DNA from: Paracoccaceae bacterium
Lineage (GTDB): Bacteria > Pseudomonadota > Alphaproteobacteria > Rhodobacterales > Rhodobacteraceae
NCBI GenBank assembly: GCA_020425125.1
Contig: JAGQRV010000018.1
Location: forward strand, 87,496 to 151,495
Reading direction: 5' to 3'
DNA: 64,000 nt
Positions within the stretch are counted from its first letter, which is position 1. Each line of letters starts with the position of its first letter. The translations under genes and the position numbers were made by a program. Shown in pieces: positions 39,930 to 51,472 of this stretch. Under the pieces are notes generated by a model. It ran no database searches, had not been told where the DNA came from, and worked only from the letters and a program-made list of their open reading frames with translations.

Positions 39930-40619
39930 TTGGGGCTCTCGGTCGAACAGCAGGCATTCTGCGGACGGCTCGGGCACGAATTCGGGCGCCCCGAACTTCT
40001 GCGGTCCGCGCTGACCCATCCGTCGATGTCGTCGACGGTGCGCGCGGACAACCAGCGCCTTGAATTTCTGGGCGACCGGGTGCTCGGGCTGGTGATGGCC
40101 GAAGCGGTGATGGCCGAGGACCTGGAGGCGCCCGAAGGCAGCCTCGCGCCGCGCTTCAACGCCCTGGTGCGCCGCGAGACGCTGGCGGAGGTTGCCCGTG
40201 CGCTCGACCTGGGATCCGCGCTTCGGCTCGGGCGGTCGGAAATGATCGCTGGTGGCCGGAAGCGTGACGCGGCGCTGGCCGACGCGATGGAAGCGGTGAT
40301 CGCCGCGATCTATCTGGATGCCGGGCTCGACGCGGCGCGGGCGGTGGTGCTGCGCCACTGGGGGCGCCGCGTGGCCGTCGCCGAGACCTTGGCGCGCGAT
40401 GCCAAGACGGCGCTGCAGGAATGGGCGCAGGCCCGCCGTCAGACGCCGCCGAGCTATGACGAGATCGCCCGCGCCGGCCCGGATCACGCACCGGTCTTCA
40501 CCATCCGCGCCCGACTGCAGAGCGGTGAAGAGGCCTCGGCGACCGCGGGGACCAAGCGCGCTGCCGAGCAGGCCGCGGCGCAGGCTCTGCTTGGCCAGAT
40601 CGAGACGGACACGGAATGA
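39930..40619 (+). CDS. rnc: Ribonuclease III
   Basis: A 229-residue double-strand-specific endoribonuclease for rRNA and mRNA processing. The signature [15 protein letters not shown] (~res. 36-50) carries the catalytic acidic residues, and a C-terminal dsRNA-binding domain ends near [13 protein letters not shown]. The start appears to be a TTG two bases after the lepB stop; no upstream alternative exists. The stop overlaps the era ATG (ATGA). Confidence 0.95.
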
Positions 40620-41554
40620 GCGACGTCGAGACATCCCCGCCTGCCGGACCGACCCGCGCGGGCTTCGTCGCGCTGATCGGCGAGCCCAATGCCGGCAAGT
40701 CCACGCTCCTGAACCGGATGGTCGGGGCAAAGGTCTCGATCGTGACCCACAAGGTGCAGACGACGCGCGCGCGCATTCGGGGCGTGGCGATGGAGGGCGC
40801 GGCGCAGATCGTCTTCGTCGACACGCCGGGCCTGTTCCGGCCCCGCCGGCGGCTCGACCGGGCGATGGTGGCCGCGGCCTGGGGCGGGGCGGCGGATGCC
40901 GATATCGTCGTCCTGCTGATCGAGGCGCATCGCGGGCTGACCGAGGGCGTGGAATCGATCCTCGCGGCGCTTACGGAGCGGACCGAGGGGCGCAGTATCG
41001 CGCTGGCGATCAACAAGATCGACCGCGTCGAGGCGCCCGCGCTTCTCGCGCTCGCACAGGAGATGAACACGCGCTACCCGTTCGCGCGAACCTTCATGAT
41101 TTCGGCCGAGCGCGGGCACGGCGTCGAAGATTTGCGCCGCTGGCTGGCCGCCGAACTGCCCGAGGGGCCGTGGCTCTATCCCGAGGATCAGATCGCCGAC
41201 CTGCCGGTGCGGATGATCGCCGCCGAGATCACCCGCGAGAAGCTGACGCTCAGGCTGCACCAGGAGCTTCCCTATCAGCTCACCGTCGAAACGGAACACT
41301 GGCAGGAGCGCAAGGACGGCTCGGCCCGGATCGATCAGGTGATCTACGTCATCCGGGACGGCCACAAGGGGATCGTCATCGGTCACAAGGGCGAGACGCT
41401 GAAGGCCGTCGGGCAGGCGTCGCGGGCCGAGATCGAAGCATTCCTGGGCCGCAAGGTGCACCTATTCCTCAATGTGAAGGTGCGGCCCAACTGGCTGGAA
41501 GAGGCCGAGCGCTACAACGAGATCGGCCTTGATTTCCGCGACGGGGACCAATGA
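40616..41554 (+). CDS. era: GTPase Era
   Basis: A 312-residue GTPase needed for 16S rRNA maturation and 30S assembly. G motifs: GEPNAGKST (G1, ~res. 22-30), FVDTPG (G3) and INKID (G4); the C-terminal KH domain shows [14 protein letters not shown]. Classic rnc-era coupling through an ATGA overlap, and another ATGA overlap with the next gene. Confidence 0.97.
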
Positions 41555-42784: not shown

Positions 42785-43321
42785 ATGACGACCGAAACCC
42801 AGAACACGTCCCGCACGATGATCGTCGAAGGCGCGATTTCACTGATCCTTCTGGCGCTGGCGTTCCTAGCCATCGCAGCATCCGATATCTCGGCCGGCAA
42901 TTCGCACAATTACTGGGTCGGCCTTGTCGTGATCTACGGGATTGCGAGTTTCATCTTCGATCGTCTCCATACCGGCCACAAGTGGACCGACTGGCGGTCG
43001 ATGGTGACCATCGTCATCCACTGGGCGGGCGTTCTGGCAACGATCCAGCTTGTGCACATGTTCGTCGCCGCGGGCCGCATCGACAACGCGAATATCGGTC
43101 TTGCGGACGGGTTGCTGCTGGCTTTGGGCACGTTCACGTCGGGTGCCGCCGGAAACTGGCGGATGATCGTGATCGGCATTGCCCTTGGTCTGGCGACCGC
43201 TGTCGTCGCCATGGTCGAGCAGTATCTCTGGGTTCTGCTGGGCGTTGCGGTGGTGACGGTTCTGATCGTCATTCTCGGCAGCCGGTTCCGCGCCAACAGG
43301 CGAGCCGGCATGGATGCCTGA
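42785..43321 (+). CDS. Membrane protein of unknown function (five TM helices)
   Basis: A 178-residue integral membrane protein with about five hydrophobic helices (EGAISLILLALAFLAIAA, then WVGLVVIYGIASFIF and others) and a short basic tail. No catalytic motif. Its last eight bases overlap the start of the AI-2E family transporter gene, so they are co-expressed. Function unknown. Confidence 0.82.
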   Translation: MTTETQNTSRTMIVEGAISLILLALAFLAIAASDISAGNSHNYWVGLVVIYGIASFIFDRLHTGHKWTDWRSMVTIVIHWAGVLATIQLVHMFVAAGRIDNANIGLADGLLLALGTFTSGAAGNWRMIVIGIALGLATAVVAMVEQYLWVLLGVAVVTVLIVILGSRFRANRRAGMDA

Positions 43322-44432
43322 CCCGGAACCGCCAGAGCCGGCAGAGCGGCCCGCGGCGGGATTGTCGGTGCCGCGGAACCACGGGGAACGTGCAATTGAC
43401 GTCGCCGTCCGTCTGGCGGTTCTGGCGGGCTTCCTGGGTTTGGTTATCGCGCTGATCCGGCCATATTTCGGGCTTCTCGTCTGGTCCGCGATCCTGACCG
43501 TCGCGCTTTATCCCCTGTTTGCCTGGCTCCGGGACCGACTGGGCGGTCGCAGCCACCTCGCCGCCATACTGGTCACGCTGCTGGCGCTCGTCGTGGTTTT
43601 CGGACCCGCCGCGCTTCTGGTCTCCAGCGTCGTCGTGTCGCTCGAAGGACTGGCCGCTGCGGTCCATGACGGGACGCTCGCACTGCCGCCCCTTCCCGCC
43701 GCAATCGAAAACCTGCCCCTTGTCGGCGCGACTCTGAAGAGCCTCTGGACCAATGGCATGGCCGGCGCCGAAGCGCTGCTGAGGGCCCACGGCGATGCGC
43801 TGGTCGGTCCGGGGAAGACCGTCCTGCAGATCATCGCCGGACTAGCCGGAAGCGTCGCCGTCTTCGCGGTGGCGGTCGTCGTGGCGGGCTTCCTGTTCGT
43901 TCCCGGACCGCGGATTGTCGCCGTTGTCCGCGAGGCGGCGCACAAAATTGCCGGTCCGCGCGGCGACCGGTTCATTGCGCTCGGGGGGGCCACGGTGCGC
44001 AGCGTTGCGCGCGGGATCATCGGCATCGCGATGCTTCAGTCCTTGCTGATGGGATCGGCGATGATCGTGGCCGACATTCCCCATGCCGGTCTGTTGACGC
44101 TCGCAGTCCTGATCGTGTCACTGGCGCAGATTGCGGCGGCCTTCGTCGCGGTTCCCGTGACGATCTGGGTCTGGTTTGCCCATGGCAGCGTGTTCGCGAT
44201 CGTCTTCAGCCTCGTCTTCCTGCCCCTCGGGGTCATGGAGATCCCGCTCAAGCCGCTTGCAATGGGCCAAGGGCTCGACACGCCGATGATCGTGATCGTG
44301 GCGGGGGTTGCTGGAGGGATGGTCGCGTTCGGTCTTCCGGGCCTGTTCCTCGGGCCCCTGGTCCTGTCCCTTGCCTGGGAAATGCTTGCCTATTGGCTGG
44401 CGGAGACGGGGGCGGGGCGGGGGGCGGAGTAG
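43314..44432 (+). CDS. AI-2E family transporter (PerM/YdiK-like)
   Basis: A 372-residue permease of the PF01594 family, a group including the AI-2 exporter TqsA, Na+/H+ antiporters and many uncharacterised members. It shows the usual arrangement: two to three N-terminal helices (res. ~30-80), a soluble helical stretch (~90-150), and five or six C-terminal helices with PLGVMEIPLKPLAMGQGLDTP and a final GLPGLFLGPLVL. Substrate unknown. Co-transcribed with the membrane protein upstream; convergent with the next small gene. Confidence 0.88.
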   Translation: MPDPEPPEPAERPAAGLSVPRNHGERAIDVAVRLAVLAGFLGLVIALIRPYFGLLVWSAILTVALYPLFAWLRDRLGGRSHLAAILVTLLALVVVFGPAALLVSSVVVSLEGLAAAVHDGTLALPPLPAAIENLPLVGATLKSLWTNGMAGAEALLRAHGDALVGPGKTVLQIIAGLAGSVAVFAVAVVVAGFLFVPGPRIVAVVREAAHKIAGPRGDRFIALGGATVRSVARGIIGIAMLQSLLMGSAMIVADIPHAGLLTLAVLIVSLAQIAAAFVAVPVTIWVWFAHGSVFAIVFSLVFLPLGVMEIPLKPLAMGQGLDTPMIVIVAGVAGGMVAFGLPGLFLGPLVLSLAWEMLAYWLAETGAGRGAE

Positions 44433-44439
44433 GGGCGGG

Positions 44440-44637
44440 TCAGCGGTAGAGGCCGGCGTTGGCGGCGCGCTTCTCGTCGCGTTCGGTGATCAGGCGCTTC
44501 AGGGTGTGTTCGAAATTCTCGGCCTCGGCGGGGACGTGCTCGTGATCCTCGGGGCTGGGGGCCGCAGCGGATTTTGCCTTGTCCTTCAATGACTTTTCGT
44601 CCGACTTGGCGGACTTCTTTTCGCTTTTCTTCGCCAT
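44440..44637 (-). CDS. Lysine-rich small protein, unknown function
   Basis: A 65-residue highly charged protein: a Lys/Ser/Ala-rich N-terminal half (MAKKSEKKSAKSDEK...) and an acidic-amphipathic C-terminal half (EDHEHVPAEAENFEHTLKRL). It looks natively disordered, in the manner of small histone-like or nucleic-acid-binding proteins. GGGAGAGG lies close upstream of the ATG. A longer in-frame version exists upstream but is not supported. First gene of the accessory region. Confidence 0.65.
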   Translation of the reverse strand: MAKKSEKKSAKSDEKSLKDKAKSAAAPSPEDHEHVPAEAENFEHTLKRLITERDEKRAANAGLYR

Positions 44638-44724
44638 TTCAGCCTCTCCCTGACCGATGTTGCGACTCAGTCTAGCGCAGGCTTCGGGCGGTGTGAACGG
44701 GGTTCGCACGGGGGAAACGGGGCG

Positions 44725-44763
44725 TCGGACATGCATCGGACTTTCATCGGACTTCTGTCGGAC
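44725..44763. repeat. Four-copy 11-bp iteron-like array (TCGGAC-N5)
   Basis: TCGGAC occurs four times with exact 11-bp periodicity, at 44725, 44736, 44747 and 44758, with variable 5-bp spacers. The array lies about 85 bp upstream of the BrnA-like gene start, in non-coding DNA. Same-face spacing close to one helical turn is what cooperative operator or iteron arrays show. No binding protein is known to me. Confidence 0.85.
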
Positions 44764-44848
44764 CGGCCGCACGGTGGCCAAGGGGGCGGTTAACCCTTCG
44801 GCAGGCAGGCTTTGCGCCCAGGATGCCCCGAAGCCGAGAGAGACGCCG

Positions 44849-45247
44849 ATGCCGAAACCCCGCGCCGCCCACCGCCAGAAGCCCGAGATCGGCCAGACGA
44901 AGACCGCGCGCATCGCCTATGAGCGGATGCTGCGGCACGTGCTGGAGATCGACTACGAAGGGCTGGTGCCCTATTACGACCTCTGCGAGATCATCCCGAA
45001 GGCCTGGGACACGCTGGAACAGGATATCGACGTCACCGAGAAGAAAGTGAAGGTCACGCTGCTGCTGGACGACAGCGTCGCCAAGTTCTTCCGCGCCCAG
45101 GGGCAGGGCTACCAGGCCCGCATCAACCGCGTGCTGGGCACTTTCGCGCAGATGAAGATCGCCGAGATCCGGCTCGCCGAGAAGCGGCTGGCGCGGATCC
45201 GCGAGGAGGAGGCGGAGCGGGTGCGGCGGGAGAGGGAGGGGCGGTAA
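44849..45247 (+). CDS. BrnA/DUF4415-like antitoxin, orphan
   Basis: A 132-residue protein whose C-terminal part (~res. 65-115) matches the BrnA/DUF4415 ribbon-helix-helix antitoxin type: ITEKKVKVTLLLDDSVAKFF-like sequence (DVTEKKVKVTLLLDD, FFRAQGQGYQARINRVL). BrnA neutralises the BrnT RNase and represses its own promoter as a dimer. Here no brnT-like gene is found on either side, so it is an orphan or a stand-alone regulator; the 11-bp repeat array upstream is a plausible own operator. GAGAGAG precedes the ATG. Confidence 0.75.
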   Translation: MPKPRAAHRQKPEIGQTKTARIAYERMLRHVLEIDYEGLVPYYDLCEIIPKAWDTLEQDIDVTEKKVKVTLLLDDSVAKFFRAQGQGYQARINRVLGTFAQMKIAEIRLAEKRLARIREEEAERVRREREGR

Positions 45248-45302
45248 GGGCTTGTGTTGGTAGTTGAATCACGCACCCTACGCTTATTGGGGGGAGGTGT
45301 TG

Positions 45303-45623
45303 ATGACGGTGAGACTGACGGAGATGCTGCCCGCGCTGGACCCAGCGCGCCGGGCGCGGATCGAGGCAGAGGCGGAGCGATTGGAGGACGAATACCGGAC
45401 GCTGCAGCAGTTGCGGAAGGCGCGGGAGTTGACCCAGACCCAGATCGCCGAGTCGCTGGGCGTGCGGTAGGCCAGCGTCGCGCAGATGGAGAATCGCAGC
45501 GACCTGATGCTGTCGACGCTTCGGAGCTACGTTGAGGCGATGGGCGGAGAATTGCGGCTGACAGTGAGCTTTCCGGGGCAGCGGGAGGTAGAGTTGGGTG
45601 GGTTTGGCAATGACGAGGCGTGA
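45303..45623 (+). pseudogene. HigA/XRE-type antitoxin gene interrupted by an amber codon
   Basis: A helix-turn-helix gene of 106 codons whose reading frame is intact except for one TAG at 45468-45470 (codon 56). Before it: RLTEMLPALDPARRARIEAE ending LTQTQIAESLGVR; after it in the same frame: ASVAQMENRSDLMLSTLR and EAMGGELRLTVSF to a TGA. The stop falls where relatives have Gln (LGVRQ-ASVAQME) in the recognition helix, so CAG to TAG is the simplest change. Typical HigA-like antitoxins pair with a RelE/ParE-type toxin; none is present. Read as a pseudogene, or a recoded or mis-sequenced gene. Confidence 0.75.
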
Positions 45624-45630
45624 GGGATGC

Positions 45631-45649
45631 GGTGGGCGGGAAGCCCACC
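45631..45649. repeat. GC-rich palindromic repeat element (copy 1)
   Basis: GGTGGGC-GGGAA-GCCCACC forms a 7-bp hairpin, followed by CTACAC. The first 12 bases (GGTGGGCGGGAA) recur at 47135-47146, also beside a CCTACAC, on the other side of the SIR2 gene; a CACCCTAC relic occurs at 45272-45279. It looks like a dispersed REP-type element and could also end the upstream transcript. Confidence 0.6.
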
Positions 45650-45720
45650 CTACACTTGCTATTGTAGCTGGATTCCCAAGAAACTAGTGGTTGTGTTGTA
45701 TCTGTTGAAACCCAGTGGCC

Positions 45721-47097
45721 ATGGAGGCTTTTTTGGAGAGCGATACGTCCTCGTACCAGCTAGAGGCAGATTCTGCAATTAGAGACTTGCTCCTTGAGTT
45801 CGAGTGCCAGCCGATCCTATTTGTCGGAAGCGGCTTGTCCAAGAGATATTTTGGCGCTCCGAATTGGTTAGAGTTGCTCGGGATAATTTTCGAAAGAACG
45901 GGAAAATCTAAGGAGGACTTCGAATATTACAGGCAAAAATTCAATAACGACCCGATTGAGATTGGCGATGTCTTGTCCGAAATTATTTTCGAGTAGGCCT
46001 GGGCCAAAGGAAGATCTGCATTTCCAAATGCCTATTTTTCCTCAGGGGCCGGAAAAGATTTATTCGTAAAGCGTCTCGTTTGCGAACATCTGAATGAGAT
46101 TACCCCTGAATTGTCGACTATCTCGGACAAAAAGATCGTTGCCGAACTTGGTGATCTAGCGGCGATCAAGCCACACGCAATTATTACTACAAATTACGAT
46201 TGCTTCCTTGAGAAGGTATTTGATGGGTATGAGCCAATAATCGGGCAGACGATATTGCGCTATAACACGAGTAGCTTCGGAGAGATTTTTCATATCCATG
46301 GCGACGTCTCGACGCCGGAATCTCTGGTTTTGACAAAGTCAGACTACGCCGATTGGAACATGAAGAAGAAATATGTTTCCGCAAAACTATTGACATACTT
46401 TGCTGAGCATCCAGTGTTCATCTTTGGGTATGGCCTCGGAGATCCCAACGTGAAGAGCATATTGAGGGACATTGGTGAGATCGTTGCAGATGATAGCGGT
46501 CTTATCCCAAATGTCTTTCATGTCGTATGGCGGCCAAGCCCCATAGAGAAGTTGCCACCTGACCAAGCCGTGTTTTCAGTGGATGGTAGGGAGTTTCGAA
46601 TAAAAGCTATTCATACGGGTGATCTGTCTTGGGTATTCAGGGCGCTCAGAAGTAGAGCTGCTATTTCCTCAATAAATCCAAAGCTAGTTAGGGCGTTAGC
46701 TGCTCGCACTATGAAGCTTATACGGCACGATATCCCGTTCGGAGAGGTCCAGGTTAACTATGACGTCCTTGAACGTGTCGCTGACGAAAAAGACCACTTA
46801 CCAAATCTTCTTGGGATTACCTCAGTTAGCAATCCAAATCAATCGCATCCTTTCACATTGACGCAGGTGGCAAAAAGAATTGGCCTGCGGAATTGGAATC
46901 AGGTAAGCAAGTTGATCAATCGAATAAAGGACGAAACGGGCACTGATTTGCGCTCTACCGACAATAGATACCACTGCAGAATCAAGACGGGGACAAAAGA
47001 CTCTAGCGCGACAAGGAAGTGGTCGCACGAGGCGATCGAGCTTTTCAAGAAGGTGAAAGTTGGTGATCCCTACCAATTGGGTCCGATGGACCTGTAG
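45721..47097 (+). pseudogene. SIR2-domain protein, defence-type, with one in-frame TAG
   Basis: A 458-codon gene, visibly AT-rich against its GC-rich neighbours, broken by one TAG at 45994-45996 (codon 92). The same frame continues without loss. SIR2 features: VGSGLSKRYFG (~res. 35-45), TTNYD with the NAD-contacting Asn (~158), IHGD with the catalytic-type His (~193) and FGYGLGDPN (~235). The C-terminal ~120 residues hold a possible HTH (LTQVAKRIGLRNWNQVSKL). Bacterial SIR2-like proteins of this kind are usually NAD+-depleting effectors of anti-phage systems. Homologues commonly read EYAW where this has E-stop-AW. Whether it is dead, a two-part product (restart near a TTG at 46111) or an assembly error is open. 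Confidence 0.8.
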
Positions 47098-47134
47098 TGT
47101 CATCTGCTAGAAATCCATAAGGCGATCCTACACT

Positions 47135-47146
47135 GGTGGGCGGGAA
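47135..47146. repeat. GC-rich repeat element (copy 2)
   Basis: GGTGGGCGGGAA, an exact 12-base copy of the left arm and loop of the element at 45631-45649, preceded by CCTACACT. The two copies bracket the SIR2 gene in direct orientation. Confidence 0.55.
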
Positions 47147-47207
47147 ACGTTCAAATGAGAATTCTATGTCACGCTAGGCCAAAACGAGGATCTTGATGTG
47201 TAGGATC

Positions 47208-47221
47208 CCCGCTTTCGCGGG
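47208..47221. repeat. Short CCCGC-TTTC-GCGGG hairpin (dispersed-repeat type)
   Basis: CCCGC-TTTC-GCGGG with flanking GGATC and AATTACA resembles a dispersed intergenic hairpin found in many proteobacterial genomes (the CCGC-TTTCG-CGGG type). It lies between the SIR2 gene and mcd and could terminate either transcript. The surrounding 47098-47357 gap holds no gene. Confidence 0.5.
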
Positions 47222-47289
47222 AATTACAGGCGTAGCGGGCAGGTCGAGTGGCGGAGTCAATCAGCCCGATGGCACCCAGCAACCCTACG

Positions 47290-47311
47290 CAATCACCTGC
47301 GCCTGGATCTC
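47290..47311 (-). repeat. Partial copy of the 3' end of mcd
   Basis: 22 bases match the last coding part of mcd at 47378-47399 with about three mismatches, in the same orientation and 88 bp away. Read on the minus strand it gives Glu-Ile-Gln-Ala-Gln-Val-Ile-Ala followed by TAG, copying the C-terminal segment of the enzyme. It looks like a recombination or duplication scar next to the accessory island. Confidence 0.65.
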
Positions 47312-47357
47312 GCAGTTCAGCCGAGGGCGGCGCCCGCTGGACGCCGCCTGAAATCGG

Positions 47358-49058
47358 TCAGCCGAGCAGTCTTCTTGCAATGACCTGCGCCTGAATCTCC
47401 GCCGCGCCTTCGAAGATGTTCAGGATCCGCGAGTCGCAGAGGATTCGGCTGATCGTGTATTCGAGGGCAAAGCCGTTGCCGCCGTGGATCTGCAGGGCGT
47501 TGTCGGCCGCGGCCCAGGCGACGCGGGCACCGAGGAGCTTGGCCATGCCGGCCTCCAGGTCGCAGCGCTGGCCGTGGTCCTTCTCCCACGCGGAGAAATA
47601 GGTGAGCTGGCGCGCCACCATGATCTCGACCGCCATCATGGCGAGCTTGGAGGAGACGCGGGGAAACTCGATCAGGGCCTTGCCGAACTGCTTGCGGTCG
47701 AGCGCGTACTGCATGCCGACATCGAGCGCGGAGCAGGCGACGCCGATGGCGCGTGCGGCGGTCTGGATGCGGGCGCTCTCGAAGGTCTCCATCAGCTGCT
47801 TGAAGCCCTGGCCGGTGACGCCGCCCAGGAGGTTCTCGCCCTTGACCTCGAAGCCGTCGAAGCCGAGTTCGTATTCCTTCATGCCGCGGTAGCCCAGCAC
47901 CTCGATCTCGCCGCCGGTCATGCCGGGGGTGGGGAAGGGGGCGTCGTCGGTGCCCGGCGTCTTCTCGGCGAGGAACATGGAGAGGCCGCGCCAGTCGGTG
48001 GTGTCGGGCTCGGTCCGGGCGAGCAGCGTCATGACATGGGTGCGGGCGGCGTGGGTGATCCAGGTCTTGTTGCCGGTGACCTTCCAGGTGTCGCCGTCCT
48101 TCACCGCGCGGGTGCGCAAGCTGCCGAGGTCGGAGCCGGTATTGGGCTCGGTGAAGACGGCGGTGGGGAGGATCTCGGCCGAGGCGATGCGGGGGAGCCA
48201 CTGCGCCTTCTGGTCGTCGGTGCCGCCGCAGAGGATCAGCTCGGCGGCGATTTCGGAGCGGGTGCCGAGGGAGCCGACGCCGATATAGCCGCGCGAGAGT
48301 TCCTCGGACACGACGACCATGGAGGCCTTGGAGAGGCCGAAGCCGCCGAATTCCTCGGGGATGGTGAGGCCGAAGACGCCCATCTCGGCGAGTTCGCCGA
48401 TGATCGACATCGGGATCAGCTCGTCCTTGAGGTGCCAGTCGTGGGCGAAGGGGATGACCTTTTCCACGGCGAAGCGGCGGAACTGGTCGCGGATCATCTC
48501 GAGCTCGTCGTCGAGGCCGGAATGGCCGACGGTGACGTTCGCGGCGTGCTCCTGCATGAGCGCGACGAGGCGGGTGCGGGCGGCCTGGGTGTTGGCGCCG
48601 GCCATCAGCGTCTCGACCGCGTCGGTGAGCATGGCGCGGCGGTCGTCATGGGTGAGGCCGAGGTCGGCGGGGCGGACGATCTCGCCCTGGTTCATCGGGA
48701 TGCCGCCGTGGATCTGCGAGAGGTATTCGCCGAACGCGATCTGCAGGATCAGCTGCTCGGTCTCGCCGAACTTGCCCATGTCGTCGAGCCGGCCGGCCCA
48801 GGCGCGCATCTGGCGCAGCGCCTCGACATAGGTGGCGAGCCAGGAGAGCCCGTGCGCCGCGGTCTGGTTCGCCTCGATCAGCCCGGCCGAGACCTTGCCG
48901 TCGGCGCTGCACAGCGCGCGCACCCGGTCGGTGGCGGTGGCGAGGAGCGCTTCGGCGGGGGGAACGGCGGCGCCGGTCAGGGCGAGAAGGTCGGGGAGGA
49001 TCACCGGCTGGGCGCCGGCGGCGGGCAGGGGCTGTCCGTCATGGGGCATGAGTCGCAT
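47358..49058 (-). CDS. mcd: (2S)-methylsuccinyl-CoA dehydrogenase
   Basis: A 566-residue flavoprotein of the acyl-CoA dehydrogenase family with the ~150-residue N-terminal extension typical of Mcd, which oxidises methylsuccinyl-CoA to mesaconyl-CoA in the ethylmalonyl-CoA pathway. Visible: the extension (YVEALRQMRAWAGRLDDMG, GEYLSQIHGGIPMNQGE), FGLTIPEEFGG, FTEPNTGSDLGSLRTRA (flavin site) and the C-terminal IHGGNGFALEYTISRI. The ATG with AGAGGAAAGG directly upstream is chosen; another ATG lies three codons in. The pathway name rests on the extension and family memory; a general acyl-CoA dehydrogenase is the alternative. Confidence 0.82.
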   Translation of the reverse strand: MRLMPHDGQPLPAAGAQPVILPDLLALTGAAVPPAEALLATATDRVRALCSADGKVSAGLIEANQTAAHGLSWLATYVEALRQMRAWAGRLDDMGKFGETEQLILQIAFGEYLSQIHGGIPMNQGEIVRPADLGLTHDDRRAMLTDAVETLMAGANTQAARTRLVALMQEHAANVTVGHSGLDDELEMIRDQFRRFAVEKVIPFAHDWHLKDELIPMSIIGELAEMGVFGLTIPEEFGGFGLSKASMVVVSEELSRGYIGVGSLGTRSEIAAELILCGGTDDQKAQWLPRIASAEILPTAVFTEPNTGSDLGSLRTRAVKDGDTWKVTGNKTWITHAARTHVMTLLARTEPDTTDWRGLSMFLAEKTPGTDDAPFPTPGMTGGEIEVLGYRGMKEYELGFDGFEVKGENLLGGVTGQGFKQLMETFESARIQTAARAIGVACSALDVGMQYALDRKQFGKALIEFPRVSSKLAMMAVEIMVARQLTYFSAWEKDHGQRCDLEAGMAKLLGARVAWAAADNALQIHGGNGFALEYTISRILCDSRILNIFEGAAEIQAQVIARRLLG

Positions 49059-49215
49059 CCTTTCCTCTGATCTGAGCCGGGATACGCATTTCGCAGTTGC
49101 AGCGCAACAAATTTTCAAAACGCTGCCGCAGCTTGCAGTTTTATAACTGACGCAACATTTTGCACTGCGGCGCGGAATGTAGCACAGAGGGCCGGACAAT
49201 CGGGGAGTGCGGGGC
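49059..49215. promoter_or_regulatory. Divergent control region of mcd with CAGTT-N4-AACTG palindrome
   Basis: A 157-bp gap between divergent mcd and the exporter gene. It contains an inverted repeat CAGTTTTATAACTG at about 49136-49149 and repeated TTGCA-type words (GTTGCAGCGCAAC, CTTGCAGTTTT, TTTTGCACTGC). These are candidate sites for a carbon-source regulator of the mcd promoter; no known consensus is matched with certainty. Confidence 0.4.
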
Positions 49216-49992
49216 GTGGAAGAACTGTCGGTTCCGATTTCGGCCGCGGCATTCGTCGCGGCGGCCGGGGTGACCATCGTCGCGGGGTTCGTGAAGGGCG
49301 CCGTGGGCTTTGCCATGCCGATGATCATGATGGCGTGCATGGTGATGTTCCTGCCGGCACCGATCGCGCTGGCGATGCTGATCCTGCCGACTCTGGTCAG
49401 CAATGCCTGGCAGGCGCTGCGGCAGGGGCACGCGGCGGCCTGGGCATCGGTGCGGCCGTTCCGGCGCTATCTGGCCATCCTGGTGGTGACCATCCTGCTG
49501 GCGGCGCATCTGGTGACGCGGCTGAGCCCGGAGCTGCTCTATCTGGTCCTGGGGGTGCCGATCATCGGTCTGGCGCTTCTCCAGCTGTGGGGCGTGCGGT
49601 TCCACATCCCGCCCGAGCGGCGCCTGGGGGCGGATCTGGGGCTGGGCGTCTTCGCCGGGTTCATGGGCGGGCTGTCCGGGTCCTGGGGGCCGCAGACGGT
49701 GCTGTATCTGACCGCGCTCGACGTGCCGAAGGCGGAATCGGTGCGGATTCAGGGGGTCATCTACGGTATCGGCAGCGTCGCGCTGCTGGCCGCGCACCTT
49801 CAATCGGGGGTCCTGAATCTCCAGACGCTGCCGCTGTCGCTTGCCATGATCGTTCCGGCAGCGTTGGGCATGGCGTTGGGGTTCAAGGTCCACGACCGGC
49901 TCGATCAGGCGCGGTTCCGGCGCTGGACGCTGATCGTGCTGGTGGTGGTTGGCGCCAATCTGGTGCGCAAGGGGCTTGCAGGGTGGTCCTGA
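49216..49992 (+). CDS. TauE/SafE (TSUP) family permease
   Basis: A 258-residue membrane protein of the sulfite/organosulfonate exporter family. About eight helices in two repeats, with family motifs GFVKGAVGFAMPMIM in the first half and GFMGGLSGSWGPQTVLYL in the second. Substrate not predictable. GTG at 49216 is preferred because GGGGAG lies eight bases upstream; GTG at 49207 is an alternative. Divergent from mcd. Confidence 0.85.
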   Translation: MEELSVPISAAAFVAAAGVTIVAGFVKGAVGFAMPMIMMACMVMFLPAPIALAMLILPTLVSNAWQALRQGHAAAWASVRPFRRYLAILVVTILLAAHLVTRLSPELLYLVLGVPIIGLALLQLWGVRFHIPPERRLGADLGLGVFAGFMGGLSGSWGPQTVLYLTALDVPKAESVRIQGVIYGIGSVALLAAHLQSGVLNLQTLPLSLAMIVPAALGMALGFKVHDRLDQARFRRWTLIVLVVVGANLVRKGLAGWS

Positions 49993-50115
49993 CCGCACCG
50001 CACCGTTAGCCTGACAGCGGATGGGTGTCCGCCTTGGCGCTGCGAGACGTTTCGCCTGCCCGCGCAGGGCAGCGCACGCCGCCGGGTCGGACCGGTGGAA
50101 AAGGGGAGCCGCAGG

Positions 50116-50874: not shown

Positions 50875-51010
50875 GGCCGGACGGGATCATCCTGCCTGAC
50901 CTGCGAGCCGCCGGATGTCTGGCGGACCGCGCCCCCTCAGATTGACCGGCTGCGCCCGCAGGCGCAGGATCGGATTCTGCCATTTCGATTTTCAACAAGG
51001 GAATGTCAGG

Positions 51011-51472
51011 ATGCGGCTTGCAGGCTCAAAGGCGGTCCGGCTTCTTCTCTTTCTCGCTGCCCTCGCGGCGTGTTCGCCGCTGATCGCTCCCTACAGCCTG
51101 ACGGCGTATCAGAACGCGACCAGTCTGAAAGCCAGAAGCCTGAACATGATCGACCGATCCGCGGAACCCTACTCCGAAAGCAAGGAGGCGCTCGACGCGC
51201 TTCTACTGGATATCGACGAAGCCTACGAATTCGCGGCCGGATTGAACCACAACGATATCAGCGCACGGCAATGGGCTCTGGTCCGGGGGCCGGGCGGCAA
51301 TTACTGGGGCGCCTTCATCCCTGTGTGGCGCGCAGAAGGAACGACCGGCCAGAGCTTCCGAGCCGAGACGAAAAAGGAGTTCGCGGCCGCATTTGACTAC
51401 ATCATTTGCCTGGAGGCGAACAAGCGGCAGAGCACCGAATGCGCGCCGAGCGACCAGGAAGGTGGAACCTGA
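51011..51472 (+). CDS. Putative lipoprotein, unknown function
   Basis: A 153-residue exported protein with a signal peptide and lipobox-like LAALAAC (Cys ~18 after processing region LLLFLAALAAC). The mature part is mostly helical and polar, with a WALVRGPGGNYWGAFIPVWR stretch. I know no family. It is followed after 17 bp by another small gene of unknown function, apparently its operon partner. Confidence 0.75.
   Translation: MRLAGSKAVRLLLFLAALAACSPLIAPYSLTAYQNATSLKARSLNMIDRSAEPYSESKEALDALLLDIDEAYEFAAGLNHNDISARQWALVRGPGGNYWGAFIPVWRAEGTTGQSFRAETKKEFAAAFDYIICLEANKRQSTECAPSDQEGGT

What the first reader, a model, noticed from the sequence alone, without database searches (positions are those of the whole stretch)
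45721..47097. AT-rich SIR2 defence-type gene carrying a single in-frame amber codon
Seen: a 458-codon frame with SIR2 motifs (GSG near res. 37, TTNYD, IHGD, GYGLGDPN) and a possible C-terminal HTH, interrupted only by TAG at codon 92, with the Rossmann-type catalytic residues after the stop. Known: bacterial SIR2-like proteins often deplete NAD+ in anti-phage systems. Inference: this is a recently inactivated, phase-off, recoded or mis-assembled defence gene. It has no HerA, pAgo or Thoeris-type partner beside it, so if active it would be a single-gene SIR2 system with an uncharacterised C-terminal domain.
Basis: partly seen in the sequence, partly recalled or inferred. Interest (0 to 1): 0.7.

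Follow-up and report, generated by a model that had tools for sequence, protein, structure and literature searches.

The report
Broken SIR2-type phage-defence gene
A bacterial gene that looks like a stand-alone, NAD-destroying anti-phage protein is cut short by one early stop codon; intact relatives are widespread, so this copy looks like a recently disabled (or mis-read) member of an already catalogued kind of gene rather than something new.

Summary
Window 45721-47097 (+) is a 458-codon frame with one internal stop, TAG at codon 92. It is a SIR2 gene (Pfam SIR2_2, E 5e-23; PADLOC candidate family PDC-S25, E 2e-71). Among 40 relatives (37 distinct) the codon-92 column is Trp in 38, Phe in 1, missing in 1. 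Apart from the TAG, the window departs at 0 of 60 near-invariant family columns, so the lesion is recent or a sequence error. Recoding or suppression is poorly supported: 8 of 48 likely genes of the window, this one included, end in TAG; no CTA-anticodon tRNA was found (the tRNA set is incomplete); the adjacent XRE gene has its own TAG where 4 of 4 relatives have Gln. An intact relative's model (pLDDT 85) matches ThsA, KomC and DSR2 and ends in a winged-HTH-like domain outside the matched part of the PDC-S25 profile. No common partner gene was seen in the neighbourhoods read. Most likely a recently inactivated copy of a single-gene SIR2 NADase-type candidate defence system in an accessory spot of a Rhodobacterales genome. 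Low interest.

The parts
45721..47097 (+). SIR2 gene, 458 codons, interrupted; ATG at 45721 (GTG at 45715 also in frame)
   Evidence: Pfam SIR2_2 E 5.2e-23; PDC-S25 E 2.4e-71
45994..45996 (+). in-frame TAG, codon 92; the column is Trp in 38, Phe in 1 and missing in 1 of 40 relatives
45826..45834 (+). GSG motif, residues 36-38, before the stop; kept in relatives that cover it but for one S->A
46186..46200 (+). TTNYD, residues 156-160, with the predicted catalytic Asn158
   Evidence: TTNYD invariant in the 51 relatives of alignment A2
46291..46305 (+). HIHGD, residues 191-195; His193 aligns with His187 of relative L003, which aligns with KomC His146 and DSR2 His171, residues named as mutated in PDB titles
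   Evidence: PDB numbering counted by me from the printed alignments
46426..46449 (+). GYGLGDPN, residues 236-243
46858..47058 (+). C-terminal winged-HTH-like domain, about residues 380-446 (carried over from the model of intact relative L003, residues 374-440)
45303..45623 (+). XRE-type HTH gene with its own in-frame TAG at codon 56 (45468-45470); Gln in 4 of 4 relatives
   Evidence: (HTH_3 E 4.7e-7)
44849..45247 (+). BrnA-antitoxin-like gene; no BrnT recognised just upstream in the + frames
   Evidence: PF14384 E 2.4e-12

Best explanation
This is a recently inactivated copy of a single-gene SIR2 NADase of the anti-phage effector kind. In intact relatives the N-terminal SIR2 domain (GSG motif, catalytic Asn and His) would hydrolyse NAD+ and the C-terminal winged-HTH-like domain would serve as sensor or switch, so that infection triggers NAD+ loss and halts phage growth. 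Shown: SIR2 family and fold, the aligned catalytic residues, the predicted C-terminal domain, the stop, and conservation of the rest. Inferred: NADase activity, phage sensing, abortive infection. In the window copy translation should end after 91 residues, before the catalytic Asn and His; the part after the stop lacks the GSG motif, has a TTG at 46111 as its first possible start and no ATG until codon 214, so this copy should be dead. It sits in a variable accessory spot with a second amber-broken gene (XRE) and a BrnA gene without a recognised toxin, which fits an acquired island that is losing function.
For: SIR2_2 and PDC-S25 matches. Codon-92 column Trp in 38 of 40 relatives, Phe 1, missing 1. 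In columns kept by at least 95% of 36 relatives the window departs at 0 of 60, and in columns invariant in seven clade mates at 11 of 204; the mates' own figures run from 3 to 12. Model of an intact relative, pLDDT 85.1; the 50 PDB matches shown, of 362, are all ThsA, KomC/KomBC (HAM-SIR2) or DSR2. The catalytic His column agrees with KomC and DSR2. The adjacent XRE gene is broken too. One copy in the genome. At the same flank same-genus G391 carries a different AT-rich gene, and the stretches read in four other genus members lack BrnA, XRE and SIR2 there.
Against: No reads, so a sequence or assembly error is possible. The lack of other damage is unusual for a pseudogene and fits an error or a conditionally read gene equally well. 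Whole-model TM-scores to the PDB matches are modest (0.37-0.42 by query length). NADase and anti-phage activity are not shown for this subfamily; PDC-S25 is only a candidate family and its name was in no paper of the held library.
Confidence: 0.78

Rival explanations
1. Sequence or assembly error, or consensus of a mixed population: the true gene is intact and works as a normal single-gene SIR2 system.
For: The rest of the gene is undecayed (0 of 60 near-invariant columns); the assembly is a 109-contig draft.
Against: A second in-frame stop in the adjacent XRE gene would need a second independent error; completeness 100 and contamination 0.44; 3 of 40 relatives are broken as well (L010, L019, L145).
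Confidence: 0.15
2. Amber read-through or recoding: a suppressor tRNA or programmed read-through gives some full-length protein, keeping a suicide enzyme low until needed.
For: Frame otherwise kept; a relative in another genus (G139, L019) has a TAG 8 columns or 10 columns further on; a third relative, L145, has a late TAG besides its frameshift; the adjacent gene is also amber-broken.
Against: TAG ends this very gene and 7 other likely genes of 48. None of 38 tRNA hits reads CTA. Of 17 hits of a CTA pattern (39 for its reversed control), 8 were held as loci and ARAGORN found no CTA tRNA in them, 3 more lie in tRNAs with other anticodons, 6 were not checked singly. The two ambers replace different residues. 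Caveat: no Tyr tRNA was found either, so the tRNA set is incomplete.
Confidence: 0.03
3. Split gene: re-initiation after the stop gives a working second protein.
For: The 366-codon remainder is open.
Against: The first possible start after the stop is TTG at 46111 and the first ATG is codon 214; the GSG motif lies on the other piece; 37 of 40 relatives are single open frames, one of them cut by its contig end. Ribosome-binding sites were not tested.
Confidence: 0.02

Closest known systems
PDC-S25 (PADLOC candidate single-gene SIR2 system)
   Same: The SIR2 core and the region after it match profile positions 9-357 of 517
   Different: The last 160 profile positions are not matched; the window family ends in a shorter winged-HTH-like domain. 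57 of 80 viral-contig relatives match only in part and run on 47-291 residues past the match, whereas those matching to the C-terminus stop within 25 residues of it
ThsA (Thoeris effector)
   Same: SIR2 fold and catalytic region, Foldseek E 1.3e-10
   Different: No ThsB/TIR partner found; the SLOG C-terminus of ThsA (recalled) is not what is modelled here
DSR2
   Same: SIR2 protein whose His171 aligns with the window's His193 column
   Different: About 1000 residues against 458 here
KomC / HAM-SIR2
   Same: SIR2 domain, Foldseek E 2e-10 to 4e-9; His146 aligned
   Different: 264-278 residues, too short for a like C-terminus; forms a KomBC complex (PDB titles)

Membership tests
SIR2-like domain (Pfam SIR2_2) | profile match over the curated cut-off | tested here: met
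   82.1 bits against 24.5
SIR2-like domain (Pfam SIR2_2) | catalytic Asn and His in the frame | tested here: met
   Asn158, His193; both after the stop
SIR2-like domain (Pfam SIR2_2) | hydrolyses NAD+ | not testable with these tools
   no assay
PDC-S25 | profile match over most of its length | tested here: inconclusive
   E 2.4e-71, but positions 9-357 of 517 only
PDC-S25 | anti-phage activity | not testable with these tools
   candidate family; 0 papers with the name in the held library
Thoeris | ThsB/TIR gene beside ThsA | tested here: not met
   none of 10 flanking window proteins matches a ThsB model (E up to 0.001)
SIR2-HerA / SPARSA | HerA or pAgo partner | tested here: not met
   none of 10 flanking window proteins matches; none among annotated neighbours of 4 plasmid relatives
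Intact, functional gene | uninterrupted reading frame | tested here: not met
   TAG at codon 92

The most novel reading that the evidence does not exclude
The amber is not a death mark but a low-leak switch: a suicide NADase kept off by a TAG and made only by occasional read-through. The frame is otherwise untouched, a relative in another genus carries its own TAG 8-10 columns away, and the neighbouring regulator gene is amber-broken as well.
Probability: 0.03. Interest if true: 0.7.

Novelty: new member of a known kind. Interest (0 to 1): 0.2.

Why it matters
It is one more record of a defence-type gene broken by a point lesion while otherwise intact, and it draws attention to a widespread (Proteobacteria, Exiguobacterium, haloarchaea; plasmids and viral contigs), apparently partner-free SIR2 subfamily with its own winged-HTH-like C-terminus, for which I found no test in the searches made. 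The window copy itself changes little.

Tried and rejected
Genetic recoding: set aside on TAG use as terminator (the 48 genes were picked by length and codon GC, and some may be spurious) and the two different residue columns. Suppressor tRNA: none found; the patterns used a gap range that misses ordinary class I tRNAs and count for little. Re-initiation: only a TTG, then a late ATG. Phase variation: no repeat of 14 or more bases at the site. RNA element: 0 Rfam matches over the gathering score in 43000-50000. A partner gene: none common to the neighbourhoods read (by eye), no SIR2-system partner among 10 flanking proteins (which gave only LeoA/LeoBC matches for 40616-41554 and a Csx23 match for 50915-51472). 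C-terminal domain as a known family: no Pfam family matched more than 1 of 15 members, PHROGs at most 2 of 15, the best E 3.2e-5 in one member to a family of unknown function; Foldseek against viral models gave weak antirepressor hits (E 0.028), a lead to a KilAC-like wHTH (recalled), not a test. The first structure model, from 6 sequences, was poor (pLDDT 60.7) and was replaced. Paper searches on broken or phase-variable defence genes listed 1 and 0 papers, none opened; a search for SIR2 with a winged helix listed 0.

Rows left out of the family count: L011 (distant), L012 and L013 (fragments), L022-L024 (partial matches), L148-L204 (match only in part). One search also dropped L010, L019, L144 and L145. 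The 40 relatives hold three identical pairs (L006/L015, L128/L146, L129/L130).

Full report
Observation. The frame 45721-47097 (+) is real: 458 codons, terminator TAG, one internal stop, TAG at codon 92. GC is 46% over the gene against 65.5% for the window (profile).

Identity. With the stop masked, the protein matches Pfam SIR2_2 (E 5.2e-23) and the PADLOC candidate family PDC-S25 (E 2.4e-71, profile positions 9-357 of 517). NCBIfam gave nothing for an intact relative; PHROGs gave a family of unknown function, phrog_2695. Relatives: 12 loci in genome contigs; 12 of 390 genomes of the order at E up to 1e-30, the window's own included; 168 plasmid records, 24 with at least 80% of the query; 8 phage records, none with 80%; 111 viral-contig stretches, of which the best 80 were kept. 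Plasmid carriers include Vibrio, Escherichia, Diaphorobacter, Exiguobacterium and haloarchaea (20 of 168 rows shown).

Codon 92. In 40 relatives chosen as full-length or nearly so, the column is Trp in 38, Phe in 1 (L147) and missing in 1 (L145). Three pairs are identical, so 37 are distinct. Three of the 40 are themselves broken: L010 by a frameshift, L019 by a TAG 8 columns or 10 columns further on, L145 by a frameshift plus a late TAG; L144 is cut by its contig end. Two random sites in 450 codons fall within 8 codons in 3.7% of draws, so the closeness of the window's and L019's TAG is a mild oddity, and the sets are too small to say more.

State of the rest. Leaving codon 92 aside, the window departs at 0 of 60 columns kept by at least 95% of 36 relatives, and at 11 of 204 columns invariant in seven clade mates, whose own figures run from 3 to 12. 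Either the gene was under selection until recently or the stop is an error.

Recoding and suppression. 48 likely genes picked by length and codon GC end in TGA 35, TAG 8, TAA 5, the SIR2 gene among the TAG ones. None of 38 tRNA hits reads CTA. A CTA pattern gave 17 hits, against 39 for its reversed control; ARAGORN found no CTA tRNA in the 8 held as loci, 3 more lie in tRNAs already read with other anticodons, 6 were not checked singly. Tyr and some other expected tRNAs were not found either, so the set is incomplete. The neighbouring XRE gene 45303-45623 has a TAG at codon 56 where 4 of 4 relatives have Gln (11 loci searched, 4 with a match), so no single meaning of TAG restores the usual residue in both genes.

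Structure. AlphaFold2 on an intact relative (L003) with 51 sequences gave pLDDT 85.1 and pTM 0.68, with weak stretches at 332-342 and 354-364. Of 362 PDB matches the 50 shown are all ThsA, KomC/KomBC (HAM-SIR2) or DSR2; TM-scores by query length are 0.37-0.42, probably because only the SIR2 part matches (the cause is inference). By sequence, His187 of the relative (window His193) aligns with KomC His146 and DSR2 His171, residues changed in PDB entries (numbers counted by me). The C-terminal block 374-440 is helix, helix, two strands, helix. The codon-92 column (L003 residue 87) falls in the helix 73-89 of the SIR2 domain. Relatives fall in two types: 23 of 80 viral loci (L144 is cut) match to or nearly to the C-terminus, while 57 match only up to residues 243-400 and run on 47-291 residues.

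Surroundings. Upstream lie recO, an AI-2E transporter gene and a BrnA-antitoxin-like gene, then the broken XRE gene; downstream an acyl-CoA dehydrogenase gene. Of six other genomes of the genus I read this place in five. In L090-L092 recO and the dehydrogenase gene are neighbours, in L089 two other reading frames lie between, and BLAST finds no match to BrnA, XRE or SIR2 in those four stretches. In the fifth, G391 (L088), a BrnA-like gene is followed by a different 386-aa gene of 43% GC and then the dehydrogenase gene. So this is a variable accessory spot. BrnA-like and XRE-like DNA occurs elsewhere in some of these genomes. G178, of the window's family, carries DNA identical to Aliishimia ponticola over 4323 bases, which NCBI places in Rhodobacterales; so, by inference, the window belongs there too. 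Around intact relatives I saw no common partner (by eye); L005 has DarT and a macrodomain gene next door, and the E. coli plasmid copy has restriction genes nearby. 10 flanking window proteins gave no SIR2-system partner in PADLOC.

Literature. 'PDC-S25' is in 0 papers of the held library. Passages only were seen: PMC10952713 lists SIR2 in Thoeris, SPARSA, DSR1, DSR2, Sir2-HerA, Avast type V and PD-T7-2, with NAD+ depletion, DSR1 without cell death; PMC11514479 on SIR2-HerA; PMC9519451 on a Sir2 homologue among selected systems; PMC10855318, which says that the PDC systems remain to be characterised.

Verdict. A recently broken (0.78) or mis-sequenced (0.15) copy of a partner-free SIR2 NADase-type candidate defence gene. 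Ordinary; the intact subfamily is the more useful object of study.

Noticed in passing
45303-45623 (+): XRE-type HTH gene with its own in-frame TAG at codon 56; Gln in 4 of 4 relatives; only match in the genome at E up to 1e-6.
   Followed up: yes
44849-45247 (+): BrnA-antitoxin-like gene; no BrnT found in the three + frames just upstream.
   Followed up: partly
47289-47311 and 47377-47399: 23-nt direct repeat, 91% alike, copying the 3' end of the acyl-CoA dehydrogenase gene; may mark an old insertion or a lost paralogue.
   Followed up: no
about 44712-44776: Dispersed repeat of about 30-60 bases: at least 10 further copies in this genome (82-97%) and 10 in same-genus G391 (79-88%) (capped).
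   Followed up: no
45631-45649: GGTGGGCGGGAAGCCCACC, an inverted repeat just upstream of the SIR2 gene; the looser 22-base pattern occurs once in the genome.
   Followed up: partly
L088:1489-2649 (-): 386-aa gene of 43% GC at the equivalent spot of same-genus G391, with a HEPN-like RNKLVH motif (recalled) and no Pfam, PADLOC, NCBIfam or PHROGs match: a candidate defence gene.
   Followed up: partly
L019:1498-2811: SIR2 relative in another genus with its own in-frame TAG, 8-10 columns from the window's.
   Followed up: partly
L005:5028-6808 (-): DarT and macrodomain genes next to an intact SIR2 relative.
   Followed up: partly
50915-51472 (+): 185-aa protein matching the PADLOC model Csx23 (E 5.1e-9); no CRISPR context was looked for.
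   Followed up: no
G000, whole assembly: No Tyr or Ile tRNA among 38 tRNA hits; the assembly is probably missing pieces.
   Followed up: partly
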